Notes under the pieces: model-generated | Told to the model about the DNA's origin: nothing | Databases searched by the model: none | Seen by the model: the letters and a program-made list of their open reading frames with translations, nothing else | Position numbers and translations under genes: made by a program | Shown: in pieces, positions 4,968 to 11,191 of the stretch | How the letters are laid out: every line of letters starts with the position of its first letter | Numbering within the stretch: the first letter of the stretch is position 1 | Assembly (NCBI GenBank): GCA_036399815.1 | Contig: DASWMK010000224.1 | Coordinates: 1 to 44,951 of the forward strand | DNA: 44,951 nt | DNA from: Acidimicrobiales bacterium | Lineage (GTDB): Bacteria; Actinomycetota; Acidimicrobiia; Acidimicrobiales; DASWMK01 | Direction: 5' to 3'

Positions 4968-6365
4968 TCAGCCGGGCGGAGCCTGGAGGAGCTGCGGGCC
5001 GAGGAACGGGCCGAGCCCGGCGAGCTGCTGGGTGGCCGTCGCCAGCAGGCGGTCGGCCGCCTCCCTGGCGGTGCTCGTGCCCCAGGTCGTCCTCGCCGCG
5101 GCGATGAGCCCGGCGACGAGCGGCGCGGCGAACGACGTGCCGCTCCACCTCGCCATGCCCTCGAACCGCCGCTCCTGGCCGTCGGCCGTCCGGTACACGC
5201 CGCGGGGGAACGTGCTCACCACGTCGACGCCCTGCGCACAGCAGTTCACCCAGTGCCCGCGGTTGGTGAACGGGGCCGGCTGGACGCCGCCGGACGACGG
5301 GTCGACCTGCACGGCGCCCACGCCGATCACGTGGTTGAAGGCGGCCGGCCAGAACGGCCGGGACGAGGCGTCGTTGCCCGCGGCGGCGACGATGGCGACG
5401 CCGGCCGGCACCGTGGCCAGCAGCTCGCGGAGGGTCAGCGGCGGCTCGTCGTTCTCCGTGTAGCCGCCGAGCGACAGGTTGACCACGTCCGACCCGGCGA
5501 GCGCGTCCGGCAGGTCCTCGGCCAGCATCACCTCGTCGGTGGAGCCGTTCGGGTGCAGCGACGCCTCGTTGTTGATCCGGGCGCCGGGCGCGCAGGTGGC
5601 GATGATCCCGGCGATGAACGTGCCGTGCCCGCCTTCGAGGGCGAGCACCTCGCCGTCCTCGTCGAGCAGCGGGTCGAAGTCGCCGATCGTCTGCTCGGCG
5701 GGGTCGGACTCGGTGTAGCGACCGGCGAAGATCGGGTGGAGCGCGGGCCCGTCCTGCATGATCCCGGTGTCCATGACGGCGATCTGCACGCCGGCCCCCG
5801 CCGTCGGGTCGAGCAGGTAGTCGCCCTCGCCGAAGGTCGGTCGGTCCACGGGGATGGGCGCCCCGCCGGGGCCGAACTTGATCCACCCCTGGGTCCCGAA
5901 GAACACGTGGTTCGGGGCCACCCGCACCTGGGGGTCGTGGAAGCTGGCGGCGGCCGTGCGCACGGACTCCAGCGCGGCGGGCACGCCCACCTCGACGGGC
6001 ACCTTCAGCCGGACGACCTGCTCGGTCACCCGCCCGCGCGGGTCGTCGACGAGCGCGTTGCGGCCCACCAGGCGCGGCGCCGGGGCGCCGTCGGGCCGGG
6101 GCGGCCGGTGGCGGGGGAGCGGCACGGGGTCGATGCCGCAGTCGGTCAGCAGGTTGCCGACCCGCTCGGCGTCGTCGACGTGGGTCAGCACCTGGCCGGG
6201 CCGGTACAGGTAGCCCCGACCCGGTGGGCCGAGCTGCACGGCGACCCCCGTCTCGGGATCCATCGACGCCGTGCCGCGGTCCAGGAGCGCGCGCCAGCGC
6301 CGCCTGGTCTCCGCCTCGTGCTCGTCCGCCCCGTAGTAGATGCCTTCGCCACTGTGCGGGCCCAT
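4968..6365 (-). CDS. S8 family (subtilisin-like) serine peptidase
   Basis: A 465-residue protein with a complete subtilisin triad: Asp199 in IAVMDTGI, His247 in GGHGTFIAGI and Ser411 in SGTSFAAP. The oxyanion-hole Asn is in IVAAAGNDAS. About 190 residues precede the catalytic domain; they are polar and without a signal peptide, so the enzyme is probably cytoplasmic. ATG 6365 has a strong ribosome binding site (AGGAGG). The gene is divergent from the TPR-CHAT gene, 70 bases apart. The pairing of two proteases with an ECF sigma gene nearby suggests regulated proteolysis rather than nutrition. Upstream elements GTATC and GACTCG recur before the cyclase gene. Confidence 0.93.
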   Translation of the reverse strand: MGPHSGEGIYYGADEHEAETRRRWRALLDRGTASMDPETGVAVQLGPPGRGYLYRPGQVLTHVDDAERVGNLLTDCGIDPVPLPRHRPPRPDGAPAPRLVGRNALVDDPRGRVTEQVVRLKVPVEVGVPAALESVRTAAASFHDPQVRVAPNHVFFGTQGWIKFGPGGAPIPVDRPTFGEGDYLLDPTAGAGVQIAVMDTGIMQDGPALHPIFAGRYTESDPAEQTIGDFDPLLDEDGEVLALEGGHGTFIAGIIATCAPGARINNEASLHPNGSTDEVMLAEDLPDALAGSDVVNLSLGGYTENDEPPLTLRELLATVPAGVAIVAAAGNDASSRPFWPAAFNHVIGVGAVQVDPSSGGVQPAPFTNRGHWVNCCAQGVDVVSTFPRGVYRTADGQERRFEGMARWSGTSFAAPLVAGLIAAARTTWGTSTAREAADRLLATATQQLAGLGPFLGPQLLQAPPG

Positions 6366-6385
6366 CGTCCCTCCTCTCGCAAGGA

Positions 6386-6428
6386 CGAGTCGGCACCCCT
6401 CCCGGCAGATACCGCCTCCTTCTACCAT
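6386..6428. promoter_or_regulatory. Divergent regulatory region of the S8 and CHAT genes
   Basis: Rightward: GATAC (6408-6412), 10 bases, TACCAT (6423-6428), then 7 bases to GTG 6436, which makes a leaderless CHAT transcript likely. Leftward: the same GATAC read as GTATC (6412-6408), 16 bases, GACTCG (6391-6386), then a 20-base leader with the S8 ribosome binding site. The same elements in nearly the same spacing occur at 10455-10496. Confidence 0.5.
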
Positions 6429-6435
6429 CGGGGTC

Positions 6436-9057
6436 GTGACCGCCGCCGAGGCGCTCCTCGAGCGGGCGACGGCCGACCCGGTGGCGGTCCGGGCCGAGGC
6501 CGCCGTCCTGCTGGCGCGCGCGCTGGCCGACGGCGACGACGCCGTCGCCGCCGTGGCGGCCCACGCCCTCGGCCTGGCCGAGCGGGAGGCGGACGACGTG
6601 CCCGCCGCCGTGGTCCACCTCCGCCAGGCCGTCGAGCTGGCCGAGCGGGCCGGCCTGCCCGACCGGGCCGCCGTCGCCCGCCTGAGCCTCGCCCCGGCGG
6701 TCGCCTTCGCCGGCGACACCGACGCCGCCCTGGCCGAGCTCGACCGGGCCGCCGCCTCCCTGGAGGAGCCGGGGCGCAGCCGGGCGCGGGTGCAGCGGGC
6801 TGGCATCCTCCAGATGGCCGGCCGCTTCGACGAGGCGCTGGCCGAGTACGGCGGCGCGCTCCCCGTGCTGCGACGGTGGGGCGACCGCATGTGGGAGGCG
6901 CGGGCCCGCAACAACCGGGGCCTGATCCACCTCCACCGCTGCGAGTGGGCGCCGGCCGCGGCCGACCTCGAGGCCGCCCGCCGGCTGTTCGCCGCCGAGG
7001 GGTGCGACGTCGTCGTCGCCGAGCTCGACCACAACCTCGGGCTGCTCGCCGCCCGGCGGGGCGACGTCCCCGAGGCGCTCGCCCGCTACGACGCCGCCGA
7101 GGCGAGGCTGCGGGAGCTCGGCCTGCCCGGGGGCATCGGGCTGCTGGCCAGGGCCGAGACCCTGCTCGCCGTGCGGCTGGTGAGCGACGCCCGGGCGGCC
7201 GCTGAACGGGCCGTCACGATGCTCGAGGCGGCCGGGCTGGCGACCGAGGCGGCCCAGGCCCGGCTGCTCGTCGCCCACGCCGCGCTGCTGGACGGCGACC
7301 CGCCCGGGGCCGAGGCGTCCGCCGAAGCGGCCCGCCGGGCGTTCGTGGCCCAGGCGCGCCCCGGGTGGGCGGCCCTGGCCGGGCACGCGGCGGTCGCCGC
7401 CGCCTGGGCCGCCGGCGACCGGTCCGCGGAGGCGCAGCGGCGGGCGGCGGCCGTGGCCGACGAGCTGGCCGCGGTCGGGTGGGCGGTCGCGGCACTGGAC
7501 GCCCGGCTGATGGCGGCCCGCATCGCGCTCGAGTGCGGCCGGGTCGACTCGGCGATCGCCCACCTCGCCGCCGTCCGGGCCGCCGGCCGGTCCGGGCGGG
7601 CCGACCTCCGGGCCAGGGCCTGGCACGCGACCGCGCTCGTCCGGCTGGCGTCGGGCGACCGGGCCGGCGCCCTGTCCGCCGTGCGGGCCGGGCTGGCCGC
7701 CCTCGACCGCCAGCGGGCCACCCTCGGGGCCACCGCGCTGCGGGCCGCCGTGGCCGGCCACGGCGCCGAGCTCGCCGCGCTCGGCCTGCGCCTGGCGCTG
7801 TCGACGGGGCGGCCGCGGCAGGTGCTCGGGTGGGCCGAGCGGTGCCGGGCCGCCGCCCTCCGCCAGCCGCCCGCGCTGCCGCCGAGCGACGAGGCCATGG
7901 CGGCCGACCTGGCCACCCTGCGGGCGGCCACGGCCGCCGTGGAGGACGCCGTGCTGGCCGGCGACGACCCCGGCCCCCTGCTGCGCCGCCAGGCGTCGCT
8001 CGAGGGCGCGGTCCGGCGCCGGGCCCTCCAGGCCCGAGGGGCGGTGCCGGCCGGCGGCACCGTCGCCGTCGGGGACGTCATCGCCGGGCTGGGCGAGGCC
8101 GCCCTCGTCGAGCTGGTCGAGGTGGACGGCGCGCTGATGGCGGTCGTCGTGGCCGGCCGGCGGGCGTCGCTCCACGACCTCGGCCCGGCCGACGCCGTGC
8201 GGGACGTCGCCAGCCGGCTCCCGGCGGCGCTGCGACGGCTGGCGACCGGGCGGGGGACGGCGGCGTCGCTGGCCGCCGCCGCGACCGCCGCCCGCCACGC
8301 CGGCACGGCCCTGGACGGGCTCCTCCTCCGGCCCCTCGCCGGCCGGTTGGGGGACCGCCCGCTCGTCGTCGTGCCCACCGGCGACCTCCACGCCCTGCCG
8401 TGGGCGCTGCTGCCGTCGTGCGCCGGGCGGCCGGTCACGGTCGCGCCGTCGGCGGCGGCCTGGTGGCGGGCCGCCTGCCTCGCCGGCGGGCGCGGCGCTG
8501 GGCGGGAGGTGCTCGTCGCCGGCCCCCGCCTGGACCACGCCGACGGCGAGGTGGCCGACCTGGCCGCCGTCTACCGGGGTGCCGTCGTCCTCCAGGGGCC
8601 GGCGGCGACCGCCTCGGCGGTGGCGGCGGCCCTCGACGGCGCGGCCATGGCCCACGTCGCCTCCCACGCCCGCTTCCGGGCCGACAACCCGCTGTTCTCC
8701 TGCCTGGACCTGGCCGACGGGCCGCTCACGGTCTACGACCTGGAGCGCCTGCGGCGCGCGCCGGCCGTGCTGGTGCTGTCGGCGTGCGAGTCGGGGCGCT
8801 CGGCGGTGCGGCCCGGCGACGAGCTGATGGGCCTCGCCGCCGCCGTCCTCGCCCTCGGGACGGCGACCCTGGTGGCGAGCGTGGTCCCCGTGCCCGACGC
8901 CGCCACCCGCCCGCTGATGGTGGACCTGCACACCCGCCTCCGTGCCGGCACCCGCCCGGCCGAGGCCCTCGCCCTCGCCCAGCAGGCCGCCCTGGCCGAC
9001 GCCGACGGCCCCGCCCTGGCGGCCAGCGCCGGCTTCGCCTGCTTCGGCGCCGGCTGA
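6436..9057 (+). CDS. TPR-CHAT domain protein (caspase-like protease)
   Basis: An 873-residue protein. Residues ~1-440 are alanine-rich helical repeats of the TPR kind (for example MAGRFDEALAEYGGAL and NNRGLIHLH followed by DLEAARRLF). Residues ~600-873 form a CHAT domain, a caspase-like cysteine protease fold: catalytic His744 in HVASHARF and Cys784 in VLSACESG, followed by GDELMGLAAAVLALGTATLV. CHAT proteases are used in regulated proteolysis and conflict systems. GTG 6436 is chosen from TACCAT 7 bases upstream; the frame is open to 6340, but that part is antisense to S8. Its neighbours (S8 peptidase, beta-rich protein, ECF sigma) suggest one signalling unit. Substrates unknown. Confidence 0.93.
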   Translation: MTAAEALLERATADPVAVRAEAAVLLARALADGDDAVAAVAAHALGLAEREADDVPAAVVHLRQAVELAERAGLPDRAAVARLSLAPAVAFAGDTDAALAELDRAAASLEEPGRSRARVQRAGILQMAGRFDEALAEYGGALPVLRRWGDRMWEARARNNRGLIHLHRCEWAPAAADLEAARRLFAAEGCDVVVAELDHNLGLLAARRGDVPEALARYDAAEARLRELGLPGGIGLLARAETLLAVRLVSDARAAAERAVTMLEAAGLATEAAQARLLVAHAALLDGDPPGAEASAEAARRAFVAQARPGWAALAGHAAVAAAWAAGDRSAEAQRRAAAVADELAAVGWAVAALDARLMAARIALECGRVDSAIAHLAAVRAAGRSGRADLRARAWHATALVRLASGDRAGALSAVRAGLAALDRQRATLGATALRAAVAGHGAELAALGLRLALSTGRPRQVLGWAERCRAAALRQPPALPPSDEAMAADLATLRAATAAVEDAVLAGDDPGPLLRRQASLEGAVRRRALQARGAVPAGGTVAVGDVIAGLGEAALVELVEVDGALMAVVVAGRRASLHDLGPADAVRDVASRLPAALRRLATGRGTAASLAAAATAARHAGTALDGLLLRPLAGRLGDRPLVVVPTGDLHALPWALLPSCAGRPVTVAPSAAAWWRAACLAGGRGAGREVLVAGPRLDHADGEVADLAAVYRGAVVLQGPAATASAVAAALDGAAMAHVASHARFRADNPLFSCLDLADGPLTVYDLERLRRAPAVLVLSACESGRSAVRPGDELMGLAAAVLALGTATLVASVVPVPDAATRPLMVDLHTRLRAGTRPAEALALAQQAALADADGPALAASAGFACFGAG

Positions 9058-9382
9058 CGCCCTCGCCGCCGGCTGACGCCCTCGCCGCCGGGTGACGCTC
9101 TCGCCGCCGGGTGACACCCCGGGCGAGGGCTGACCCCGGCGGAGGGCTGACCTCGGCCCCCGGCTCCCCCCCCCCCAGCCGCCGGGTGCCCCCGGCCGAC
9201 GGCTGCCCCCCGCCGCGCGCCCCCGGCCGCCGGCTGCCCCCCGCCGCGCGCCGACGGCTTCGCCGACCGACCGGCGTCGCCGGCGCTCGGCCACCCGGGC
9301 TCGGCCGCAGCTCCCGGGTCGGCCTCGTCGTCCGCCGCGCCCGCCCGTTGCGGACCGGCGGCAGGCCGGGCCCGCCGGTGAG
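9052..9382. repeat. Low-complexity convergent intergenic region with two short repeat families
   Basis: No gene is seen between the CHAT stop and the stop of the beta-rich protein. A 19-bp unit (GGCTGACGCCCTCGCCGCC) that contains the CHAT stop codon is repeated at 9052-9070, 9071-9089 and 9090-9108, plus a partial copy to 9118. Next come an 11-C run at 9166-9176 and a 31-bp direct repeat (9189-9219 and 9220-9250, one mismatch). It probably serves as a passive 3' region. Confidence 0.8.
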
Positions 9383-9862
9383 CTACAGCACGACCCAGTC
9401 GGTCTCGACGACGGTCTCGGGGCGGCGCCTCGTGCGGCAGAGCAGGCTCACCGGGCCGGGCGGGATGCCGGTGGCCCGGAACACGCCGACCTCGTCGGCC
9501 TCGACCCGGAGGGAGCCGTGCGGGTGGCGGACCTCGACGTCGCCGGGCTGGCCCGGGACGAGCTGGCCGACGATCGTGCGGGTGCCGCCGGCCTCGACCT
9601 CGACCTCGACGGTGAGGTCGGGCGCCTCGAACGTGAGGGTGCGCGGCTCGGCCCCGGCCGTGCCCCGGGCGCCGGCCATCGGCGCCTCGTCGAGCAGGGA
9701 GTCGTAGGCCAGCGCGGCCAGGTCGCTGTCCACCGTCCGCCAGGTGAAGCTGCCCTTGCCCGCGGCGACCACGTCGGCCGGCACGCGGTCGTACCGGTCG
9801 GCGGCGGCGGCCAGCCAGGCGGCGAGCTCGTCGTCGGAGGGGTTGGGAGTGGGGTCGGGCAC
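9383..9862 (-). CDS. 159-aa beta-rich protein cotranscribed with the ECF sigma factor
   Basis: A protein with no recognised name. Residues ~8-60 are helical and contain RVPADVVAAGKGSFTWRT; residues ~70-159 alternate hydrophobic and charged residues (LTFEAPDLTVEVEVEAG, VRHPHGSLRVEADEVG), suggesting an Ig- or carboxypeptidase-regulatory-like beta sandwich. No membrane segment, signal peptide or zinc-binding anti-sigma motif is present. GTG 9862 has a perfect AGGAGG 6 bases upstream, overlapping the sigma gene's stop region, so the two are translated from one message with an 11-base gap. Its position directly behind an ECF sigma gene and beside two protease genes makes an anti-sigma or protease-substrate role plausible but unproven. 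Confidence 0.75.
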   Translation of the reverse strand: MPDPTPNPSDDELAAWLAAAADRYDRVPADVVAAGKGSFTWRTVDSDLAALAYDSLLDEAPMAGARGTAGAEPRTLTFEAPDLTVEVEVEAGGTRTIVGQLVPGQPGDVEVRHPHGSLRVEADEVGVFRATGIPPGPVSLLCRTRRRPETVVETDWVVL

Positions 9863-9873
9863 GGTCTCCTCCT

Positions 9874-10446
9874 TCAACCCAAAGACCCCCGGGCCGCCGC
9901 CGTGATGCGCGAGATCTCGGGTGTCGACCGCAGCCGCTCCAGGCAGCGGGCCCGCGTGGGGCCGATGCTGCCGATCGGGATGCCGAGCGTCTCGGCGATC
10001 GACTGGTAGCTCGGCGGCGGGTCGGCCATCAGGAGCCGGAGGAGCACCTGGCACGGGCCGGGCAGCCGTCCGAACCCCGCCCACACCAGCGCGTCCCGCT
10101 CCTGGCCGAGCAGGTTGGCGTCGACCGGCGGCCCGTCGTCGCCGGCGTCCTCCAGCGGGTCGTCGGCCGGCACCTGGCGCTGCTGGTTGCGCAACACCCG
10201 GAGCGACTCGTTCCTCGTCGTCGTGCTCAGCCAGCCGGGCAGGCGCTCGGCGTCCCGGATCCGGCCGAGGTGCTCGACGAGGCGCAGCCAGACGGTCTGG
10301 CTGACGTCGGCGGCGTCCGCCGGCGCGAGGCCGTGGCCCCTCGCCACGCTCCACACGAGCCCGGCGAAGCGCTCGACGATGCGGTCCCACGCCGTCGAGT
10401 CCCCCTCGGCGGCCGCGGCGAGCAGGTCGGCCACGGGCTCCTCCAT
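9874..10446 (-). CDS. ECF-type RNA polymerase sigma factor
   Basis: A 190-residue sigma-70 family protein with only regions 2 and 4. Region 2 spans ~22-85 (FAGLVWSVARGHGL, DAADVSQTVWLRLVEHLGRI, LPGWLSTTTRNESLRVLR), region 4 spans ~125-175 (LPGPCQVLLRLL, SYQSIAETLGIPIGSIGPTR). It directs RNA polymerase to a small regulon. ATG 10446 is 8 bases downstream of TACGAT, so the gene is probably leaderless. The downstream beta-rich gene is in the same operon. No classical zinc anti-sigma factor adjoins it. It is divergent from the cyclase gene. Confidence 0.95.
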   Translation of the reverse strand: MEEPVADLLAAAAEGDSTAWDRIVERFAGLVWSVARGHGLAPADAADVSQTVWLRLVEHLGRIRDAERLPGWLSTTTRNESLRVLRNQQRQVPADDPLEDAGDDGPPVDANLLGQERDALVWAGFGRLPGPCQVLLRLLMADPPPSYQSIAETLGIPIGSIGPTRARCLERLRSTPEISRITAAARGSLG

Positions 10447-10454
10447 GGGGAGGA

Positions 10455-10496
10455 ATCGTAGGGGTGGCGCGTATCAGGCCGTTCACCACGGACTCG
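10455..10496. promoter_or_regulatory. Divergent regulatory region of the sigma and cyclase genes
   Basis: Leftward: GATAC (10475-10471), 10 bases, TACGAT (10460-10455), 8 bases, ATG 10446. Rightward: GTATC (10471-10475), 15 bases, GACTCG (10491-10496), 7 bases, GTG 10504. The same composite appears between the S8 and CHAT genes. GTATC and GACTCG could be the -35 and -10 of an ECF promoter. Confidence 0.5.
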
Positions 10497-10503
10497 GAAC
10501 GGC

Positions 10504-11094
10504 GTGGACCGCATGGGCGTGCGCGCCGTCGCCTTCACCGACATCGTCGGGTCGACCTCGCTCCTCGAGCGCCTCGGCGACGAGCGGTGGTCGTCGCTGC
10601 TGGCCGAGCACGACTCGGTCGTGACCGCCAGGGTCGAGGCGTGGGGCGGCCGGGTCGTGAAGTCCCAGGGCGACGGCCTGCTGCTGACGTTCCCGTCGTC
10701 GAGGGCCGCGCTGTCCGCCGCCGTCGGCGTGCAGGCCGCGCTGCGGCCCTGGTCCCACCCCTGCGTCGGGGTGGCCGTGCGCATCGGCGTCCACGCCGGG
10801 CCGGTGCTGGAGCGGGACGGCGACGTGCTCGGCCTCACCGTCCACCTCGCGTCCCGGGTCACCCGCCTGGCCCACGGCGGCGAGGTCCTCGCCTCCGAGG
10901 CCGTCAGGGCCCTCGTCCGCCGGGACGCTGCCCTCCCGTTCGGGCCCGCCCGCACGGTGCGCGTCCGGGGGTCGAGCCGGTTCCTGTCGGTCGCCCCGCT
11001 CGACTGGGCCGCGGCCGACGCCGGCGACGACGACGCCGAGCCCGTCACGCTCCCGTCCGCCTGGCGGACCTGGCGCCTCGCGCCCGTCCCCTGA
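10504..11094 (+). CDS. Single-domain class III adenylate/guanylate cyclase
   Basis: A 196-residue stand-alone class III nucleotidyl cyclase domain, expected to make cAMP (or cGMP). Metal-binding aspartates are visible in AFTDIVGST (Asp13) and KSQGDGLLLTF (Asp57); Lys53 in the same motif is the usual purine-selecting residue. In the segment LTVHLASRV the usual transition-state Asn is His while Arg is kept, which also occurs in other short actinobacterial cyclases. GTG 10504 (or ATG 10513) is divergent from the ECF sigma gene with 57 bases between; GTG 10504 lies 7 bases after a GACTCG shared with the S8 promoter. It may be a regulon member. Confidence 0.88.
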   Translation: MDRMGVRAVAFTDIVGSTSLLERLGDERWSSLLAEHDSVVTARVEAWGGRVVKSQGDGLLLTFPSSRAALSAAVGVQAALRPWSHPCVGVAVRIGVHAGPVLERDGDVLGLTVHLASRVTRLAHGGEVLASEAVRALVRRDAALPFGPARTVRVRGSSRFLSVAPLDWAAADAGDDDAEPVTLPSAWRTWRLAPVP

Positions 11095-11118
11095 CCGGCG
11101 GCCGTCCCGGTGGGCCGG

Positions 11119-11191
11119 TGGGCCGCCTGGGTCTCGAACCCAGCACCTTGGGATTAAAAGTCCCCTGCTCTACCGGATGAGCTAGCGGCCC
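11119..11191 (-). tRNA. tRNA-Lys (anticodon TTT)
   Basis: A 73-base cloverleaf on the minus strand: acceptor GGGCCGC/GCGGCCC, D arm GCTC/GAGC, anticodon loop CTTTTAA (anticodon TTT), variable loop of 5 bases, T arm CTGGG/CCCAG with loop TTCGAGA and discriminator A. The CCA end is not encoded. The 27-43 pair of the anticodon stem is a G-A mismatch; all other stems pair perfectly. Confidence 0.97.

What the first reader, a model, noticed from the sequence alone, without database searches (positions are those of the whole stretch)
4968..11094. Candidate protease-sigma signalling module: S8 peptidase, TPR-CHAT protease, beta-rich protein, ECF sigma factor, cyclase
Seen: five genes in 6 kb, with two complete protease active sites (S8 D199/H247/S411; CHAT H744/C784), an ECF sigma gene with a cotranscribed 159-aa protein lacking any known anti-sigma motif, and a class III cyclase divergent from the sigma gene. 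Established: in type III-E CRISPR systems the TPR-CHAT protease Csx29 cleaves Csx30, which controls an ECF-like sigma factor (CASP-sigma). Inference: this is a CRISPR-free counterpart in which the 159-aa protein restrains the sigma factor or is the protease substrate, and the TPR region or S8 senses the trigger. CHAT genes near S8 and sigma genes do recur in actinobacteria as I recall, but I know of no described function.
Basis: partly seen in the sequence, partly recalled or inferred. Interest (0 to 1): 0.75.

Follow-up and report, generated by a model that had tools for sequence, protein, structure and literature searches.

The report
Protease-controlled ECF sigma module and regulon
This is a gene module conserved across actinobacteria in which a caspase-like protease and a subtilase sit beside a gene switch (a sigma factor) and its small partner protein; the work here finds the DNA signal that the switch probably reads, which ties the proteases, the partner and many other protease genes into one circuit.

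Summary
The genes are as described, and four of the five form a real module. S8 subtilase, TPR-CHAT protease, ECF sigma and the 159-aa protein (p159) recur together across actinobacterial classes and in a second copy in this genome. The module matches the published context of sigma group ECF54 (CHAT, subtilase, 'carboxypeptidase'). That 'carboxypeptidase' is almost certainly p159, which is not a peptidase: two N-terminal helices, a disordered linker with a near-universal (V/A/T/I)-R-(G/A/S) motif (58/60), and an Ig-like sandwich. New here: a promoter-like motif, GTATC(A/T)-N15/16-(G/A)CTC, upstream of sigma, p159 and S8 but of none of 57 CHAT genes; 62 of 66 hits are intergenic. Its genome-wide enrichment tracks the module. 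In a genome where the genes are split, it marks the distant S8 beside the CHAT gene. In the window it faces S8 and, 9 bp from the start codon, the cyclase, so the cyclase is a predicted target, not a signalling partner. Other targets include S1 and S8 proteases and DUF6345. Best model: TPR-CHAT senses a signal and cleaves p159 at V-R|G, freeing sigma, which induces itself, p159 and S8. Sigma-p159 binding and the cleavage are inferred, not shown.

The parts
4968..6365 (-). S8 subtilase, 465 aa, catalytic D199/H247/S411 and N331; no signal peptide or TM helix seen, so probably cytoplasmic
6387..6412 (-). Promoter-like motif GTATCT-N16-GACTC facing S8 (its start codon is 22 bp downstream)
6436..9057 (+). 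TPR-CHAT protease, 873 aa, H740/H744/C784 invariant in 40/40 relatives; AlphaFold mean pLDDT 92.7; CHAT part closest to separase and Csx29 among solved structures
9383..9862 (-). p159, 159 aa: helices 10-24 and 29-58, disordered linker with A65-R66-G67, Ig-like sandwich 74-159 (CarboxypepD_reg-like in relatives)
9874..10446 (-). ECF sigma factor, 190 aa, immediately upstream of p159; same genomic context as published for ECF54
10471..10495 (+). Promoter-like motif GTATCA-N15-GACTC, 9 bp before the cyclase start codon (9 bp is the commonest distance for this motif in other genomes)
10504..11094 (+). Class III cyclase catalytic domain, 196 aa (FTDIVGST at 11, GDG at 56); predicted target of the sigma factor, not a conserved module member

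Best explanation
A soluble, cytoplasmic protease-to-sigma switch. p159, translated in coupling with the sigma factor, holds it inactive through its N-terminal two-helix segment (inferred). TPR-CHAT, which is not under the motif, detects an internal signal through its TPR part and cleaves p159 in the disordered linker after the conserved Arg ((V/A/T/I)-R|(G/A/S)), so that the sigma-holding segment is separated from the sandwich domain and sigma is released (inferred). Free sigma reads promoters of the form GTATC(A/T)-N15/16-(G/A)CTC (motif shown; recognition by this sigma inferred from co-occurrence). It induces itself, p159 (negative feedback), S8 (feedback or effector protease) and genome-specific targets: here the cyclase and a DUF6345 protein, elsewhere several proteases.
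For: Module conservation: 7 of 7 relatives found with p159 carry sigma and CHAT, six with S8; 88 sigma-anchored loci: p159 in 78, CHAT in 62, S8 in 51, some cut by contig ends. In an independent phylum sample 31/34 p159 genomes have CHAT against 49/361 without p159, Fisher p=5e-21. p159 architecture and linker motif 58/60. Extra p159 copies that sit with CHAT/S8 without a sigma of their own keep the Arg motif. CHAT domain fold closest to separase, which cleaves after Arg: 5fc2 Z 29.4, rmsd 2.8 over 306 residues (PMC4626109). Motif: 66 hits in 1.38 Mb, 62 intergenic, spacing 15/16 only, scrambled halves give 0-5 intergenic; forward upstream of sigma 30/79, p159 14/73, S8 13/46, CHAT 0/57. In genomes with p159 25 hits vs 9 reversed-pattern controls, without p159 65 vs 77, p=0.003. 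In the own genome 9 hits, 3 of them in the two modules, p=1.5e-6. Trans link: where sigma-p159 stands alone (L055), the motif precedes a distant S8 that lies tail to tail with a module-type CHAT.
Against: No binding or cleavage data. Csx29-type precedent cuts Csx30 at a non-conserved site, so a conserved site is not required. The S1-pocket acid that separases carry right after the conserved Trp is absent here (position 657 is S/A/P/G/T); only D821 (34/40) is a candidate acid. The motif is clear at only a part of the module loci (50 of about 84), and some sigma relatives stand without CHAT or S8. R66 could instead be a sigma contact.
Confidence: 0.55

Rival explanations
1. As proposed in the literature for ECF54: the proteases keep sigma off by degrading sigma itself, and there is no anti-sigma factor.
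For: Stated in PMC8999054 section 3.3 for ECF54 from the same context. Both proteases are conserved with complete active sites.
Against: The third 'protease' (carboxypeptidase) is p159, which matches a regulatory beta-sandwich family and no peptidase. p159 is the most constant neighbour of sigma, translationally coupled, and carries the one near-universal linker motif. S8 is under the motif, which would make an off-switch a feedback device.
Confidence: 0.15
2. S8, not CHAT, is the p159-cleaving protease; CHAT acts on S8 (for example activates its N-terminal pro-region) or on another substrate.
For: S8 is cytoplasmic and adjacent to sigma in the Saccharothrix and Streptomyces order >S8 >sigma >p159. 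Subtilases tolerate Arg at P1 (general knowledge).
Against: S8 is missing near sigma in more loci than CHAT (51 vs 62 of 88). S8 is a motif target, so it would be made after sigma is already free; extra p159 genes pair with CHAT as well as S8.
Confidence: 0.15
3. The GTATC-N15/16-CTC element is the site of another regulator that happens to control the same genes, not the promoter of this sigma.
For: No direct binding data. The element has two short blocks, which a dimeric repressor could also give.
Against: It is asymmetric, with fixed 15/16 spacing and a commonest distance of 9 bp to a start codon, as expected of -35/-10 blocks of a leaderless promoter. It lies upstream of sigma, p159 and S8 and its enrichment follows presence of the module.
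Confidence: 0.12
4. CHAT itself is an anti-sigma factor, as in the Myxococcus transmembrane anti-sigma DdvA, which has a CHAT domain, and p159 is an adaptor.
For: DdvA structures 8rw5/8rot are among the top matches of the model and of the profile search.
Against: The module CHAT has no clear TM helix in its first 60 residues, and its catalytic dyad is invariant in 40/40.
Confidence: 0.06

Closest known systems
ECF54 group of ECF sigma factors (representative SFT86700.1, Geodermatophilus amargosae)
   Same: Actinobacterial ECF sigma with CHAT, subtilase and 'carboxypeptidase' proteins in its context and proteolysis proposed as control (PMC8999054). The module here has exactly these.
   Different: The published reading has no anti-sigma factor and counts a carboxypeptidase among the proteases. 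Here the third protein is a non-peptidase that is the likely sigma partner, a promoter motif and regulon are predicted, and CHAT is outside the regulon. The source paper of the classification was not readable here.
Csx29 / Csx30 / CASP-sigma of type III-E CRISPR (Craspase)
   Same: TPR-CHAT protease, cleavable protein whose N-terminal part binds an ECF-type sigma, and sigma (PMC10028731); Csx29 is among the best structure matches (8eey Z 31.5, rmsd 6.8 over 533).
   Different: No RAMP/Cas7-11 in the genome. p159 is much shorter, 159 aa, with no detectable relation to any solved chain by sequence. An S8 protease is a constant extra. The candidate cleavage site is conserved, unlike in Csx30.
Separase (CHAT/clan CD, cleaves after Arg)
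   Same: Protease-domain fold (5fc2 rmsd 2.8 over 306 residues) and TPR-like superhelix before it.
   Different: The Glu that follows the conserved Trp of the separase S1 pocket is S/A/P here; P1 specificity is therefore open.
DdvA, Myxococcus transmembrane anti-sigma with CHAT domain
   Same: CHAT domain in the control of an ECF sigma (title of 8rw5/8rot).
   Different: DdvA is a membrane anti-sigma; the module CHAT looks soluble and a separate small protein is present.

Membership tests
ECF54 sigma group | Membership by the group's own profile HMM | not testable with these tools
   The ECF group models and the representative sequence SFT86700.1 are not held; the NCBIfam scan gives only the ECF superfamily TIGR02937.
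ECF54 sigma group | Context with CHAT, subtilase and 'carboxypeptidase' domains | tested here: met
   CHAT and S8 adjacent in the window and in most loci; the p159 family matches CarboxypepD_reg in 34/60 members.
ECF54 sigma group | ECF architecture: sigma region 2 and ECF-type length | tested here: met
   PF04542 E 4e-12 and TIGR02937 E 4e-17, above cut-offs; 190 aa.
ECF54 sigma group | No anti-sigma factor (as published) | tested here: inconclusive
   p159 is a candidate anti-sigma, but no interaction could be tested.
Type III-E CASP system (Csx29/Csx30/CASP-sigma) | Cas7-11 (gRAMP) effector | tested here: not met
   No RAMP match in the own genome, 96.7% complete, PF03787.
Type III-E CASP system (Csx29/Csx30/CASP-sigma) | TPR-CHAT protease with His/Cys dyad | tested here: met
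   PF12770 E 3e-32; H744/C784 invariant; structure match to Csx29.
Type III-E CASP system (Csx29/Csx30/CASP-sigma) | Csx30 homologue | tested here: inconclusive
   No PDB chain matched the p159 profile at E up to 10; a remote relation is not excluded.
Canonical anti-sigma factors with ASD | N-terminal sigma-binding helical domain | tested here: inconclusive
   Two helices predicted at 10-24 and 29-58; structure searches covered mainly residues 71-159.
Canonical anti-sigma factors with ASD | Transmembrane segment or zinc motif of common anti-sigmas | tested here: not met
   No hydrophobic segment in 60/60 p159 members; no conserved His/Cys set in the alignment.
Separase-like Arg specificity | Two acidic residues in the S1 pocket | tested here: not met
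   Position after the conserved Trp is S/A/P/G/T in 40/40; D821 in 34/40 (compared). Arg cleavage by another pocket is not excluded.

The most novel reading that the evidence does not exclude
A widespread CRISPR-free actinobacterial signalling circuit in which a separase-like TPR-CHAT protease cuts a new type of soluble anti-sigma factor (two helices, V-R-(G/A/S) linker, Ig-like sandwich) and so launches a protease-rich regulon from GTATC-N15/16-CTC promoters. It would be the ancestral or parallel form of the Csx29-Csx30-CASP-sigma branch of CRISPR immunity.
Probability: 0.45. Interest if true: 0.8.

Novelty: new variant of a known kind. Interest (0 to 1): 0.62.

Why it matters
ECF54-type sigma factors were noted from gene context with no known promoter, regulon, anti-sigma or mechanism. 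This work gives all four as testable predictions: a promoter consensus, a target list with members in trans, a re-identified partner protein (the supposed carboxypeptidase), and a single candidate cleavage bond. It also offers a CRISPR-free comparison for the Craspase sigma branch and suggests what such circuits do outside CRISPR: switch on proteases, a cyclase and, in one genome, a peptide cluster of the graspetide kind.

Tried and rejected
Cyclase as a module member: rejected, it does not recur next to sigma; kept as predicted target. Natural sigma-p159 fusion that would have let the complex be folded: looked for in 88 loci and in long Streptomyces frames, none found. p159 model against PDB: the sandwich domain matches many Ig/FN3-like folds with no telling relative, best CrdA Z 9.9; the helical part was barely tested, and no anti-sigma was listed among the rows. 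Plasmid or phage carriage: one p159 hit in an 11.85-Mb 'plasmid' record that is really of chromosome size, and phage sigma hits at 25-40% identity. Paper searches for the combination of CHAT, S8 and sigma found nothing direct; ECF54 came from PMC8999054. The ECF54 source papers are not held. First motif reading with sigma-only upstream regions was ambiguous in direction; scanning all loci on both strands settled it. In the own genome the remaining motif hits (C59, C67, C181, C244, C285) look like chance: the reversed control gives 4 against 9 hits.

Full report
Observation. p159 follows sigma on the same strand, starts at a GTG 12 bp after the sigma gene and has a strong Shine-Dalgarno that overlaps the sigma stop.

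Conservation. A tblastn look at 40 relatives found p159 in 7, and a second copy in the own genome at contig 53. Each of these eight loci has sigma and a TPR-CHAT gene beside p159, and seven have S8 (contig 53 has a p159 found). A scan of named genomes with a sigma profile gave 80 loci from Solirubrobacter, Amycolatopsis, Saccharothrix, Lentzea, Micromonospora, Nitriliruptorales, Acidimicrobiia and others. Of 88 loci in all, 78 have p159, 62 CHAT and 51 S8 in reach, although several contigs end too early. Gene order is shuffled between lineages, but sigma and p159 stay together, most often with a 4-bp overlap. Complete modules exist in four 6-10 Mb genomes of one genus (f64 g84; Streptomyces by size and gene content, an inference) in the order CHAT(-), S8, sigma, p159. 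In an independent draw of 395 genomes of the phylum, 31 of 34 with p159 have a CHAT domain against 49 of 361 without, p = 5e-21, and in 23 of the 34 the two lie within 10 kb (the distance count was made by hand from the listed coordinates). The cyclase is not part of this pattern.

What the literature has. PMC8999054 (section 3.3) says that proteolytic control has been proposed for group ECF54 because carboxypeptidase, subtilase and CHAT proteins are conserved around it. That is this module. The underlying classification papers are not in the library, so ECF54 membership rests on context only.

p159. None of Pfam, NCBIfam or PADLOC matches the window protein, but 34 of 60 family members match CarboxypepD_reg, a regulatory beta-sandwich domain and not a peptidase. 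This is probably the 'carboxypeptidase' of the ECF54 description (inference). AlphaFold (mean pLDDT 87) gives helices 10-24 and 29-58, a linker of which residues 61-68 fall under pLDDT 50, and a sandwich from 74 on. In that disordered linker sits R66, Arg in 58 of 60 sequences, always followed by G, A or S and preceded by V, A, T or I. Conservation inside a predicted disordered linker is what a protease site or a binding motif would give. Extra p159 copies that accompany CHAT and S8 without a sigma of their own (L227, L228) keep it.

TPR-CHAT. The model (pLDDT 92.7) is a long TPR superhelix followed by a protease domain. Its nearest solved relatives are separase and Csx29, with DdvA, a CHAT-bearing anti-sigma of Myxococcus, also high in the list. 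Separases cut after Arg. One of the two separase S1 acids is not present here, so Arg specificity is plausible but not established. There is no TM or signal sequence in p159 or S8 and none in the N-terminal part of CHAT, so the signal is probably intracellular.

Promoter motif and regulon. Counting pairs of short words upstream of sigma genes exposed GTATC-N16-GCTC. Scanned over all loci and both strands, GTATC(A/T)-N15/16-(G/A)CTC occurs 66 times in 1.38 Mb, 62 times outside genes although 78% of the DNA is coding. Scrambled half-sites give 0 to 5 intergenic hits, other spacings 0 to 3. With a weight matrix, hits at the 2% level face sigma in 30 of 79 loci (7 in reverse), p159 in 14 of 73 (0 reverse), S8 in 13 of 46 (2 reverse) and CHAT in 0 of 57; the matrix was trained on these loci, so the contrast between genes and strands is the informative part. 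The whole own genome has 9 hits against 4 for the reversed pattern. Three lie in the two modules (p = 1.5e-6, region size as counted): in front of S8, in front of the cyclase and in front of the second p159. A fourth lies 34 bp before the genome's only DUF6345 gene. DUF6345 shows an H-G and a D-A-C element reminiscent of clan CD peptidases (my reading), and a DUF6345 protein is also a motif target in Solirubrobacter phytolaccae. In 28 other module genomes the strict motif gave 77 hits against 25 for the reversed pattern; 68 of the 77 are not inside a gene, and the commonest distance to the start codon is 9 bp, exactly that of the cyclase in the window. In the phylum sample the excess over the control exists only in p159 genomes (25 vs 9; without p159 65 vs 77; p = 0.003, counted from the table).

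A split module gives the best single test. The genome of L055 has sigma-p159 with no S8 or CHAT near. Its motif hits are in front of sigma, in front of an S8 gene on another contig, and in front of a third gene; the module-type CHAT is tail to tail with that S8. So the motif reconnects the parts in trans.

Targets in other genomes: S8 (L147, L156 with signal peptide, L174), alpha-lytic-type S1 proteases in three Solirubrobacter (L162, L188, L196), trypsin-like (L166), EAD1-trypsin (L157), an M12-like protein (L165, weak), PAP2/haloperoxidase (L103, L206), thioesterase-like (L149, L150, L178, L183), and a 47-aa peptide followed by an ATP-grasp-like gene (L163; my reading). Enrichment for proteases is an impression from these lists; no background rate was computed.

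Mechanism. Shown here: module conservation, active-site conservation, the motif with its statistics, exclusion of CHAT from it, and p159 architecture. Inferred: p159 as anti-sigma, cleavage at R66 by CHAT, recognition of the motif by this sigma, the role of S8 as feedback or effector. What the TPR part senses is unknown.

Verdict. Works like Csx29-Csx30-CASP-sigma without CRISPR, but is not a member of it (no Cas7-11, no Csx30 relation found). By context it belongs with ECF54. It is a new variant of the known protease/anti-sigma/sigma theme, with a new predicted promoter and regulon.

Noticed in passing
G000 contig 53, L011:65-4897: A second module (S8 cut by the contig end, CHAT, p159, sigma) in the same genome, 38-52% identical to the window's proteins; its p159 has the motif 24 bp upstream.
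   Followed up: partly
L138:4003-4677 (-), own genome contig 17: DUF6345 protein, only one in the genome, 34 bp behind the motif; FFSGHG and VDAC elements suggest a clan CD-like peptidase of unknown function.
   Followed up: partly
L227, L228: Extra p159 genes paired with CHAT and S8 without a sigma factor of their own; p159 copies outnumber sigma genes.
   Followed up: partly
L054, L083, L103: Close sigma relatives in Solirubrobacterales without p159 stand divergently next to genes for 1140-1195-aa proteins that look like BTAD/ATPase regulators.
   Followed up: no
L163:1577-2706: Motif in front of a 47-aa peptide gene followed by an ATP-grasp-like gene, resembling a graspetide (peptide protease inhibitor) cluster.
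   Followed up: no
L062:4479-5147 (-): A motif-driven 223-aa protein with a CarboxypepD_reg domain that weakly resembles p159.
   Followed up: no
window 9044-9282: Tandem GC-rich repeats (19-bp unit, 4 copies, then 17- and 31-bp units) between the ends of the CHAT and p159 genes.
   Followed up: no
window 11117-11191 (-): tRNA-Lys (TTT) directly behind the cyclase gene.
   Followed up: no
NZ_LT559118.1: Record listed as a plasmid of Nonomuraea gerenzanensis is 11.85 Mb, evidently the chromosome.
   Followed up: no
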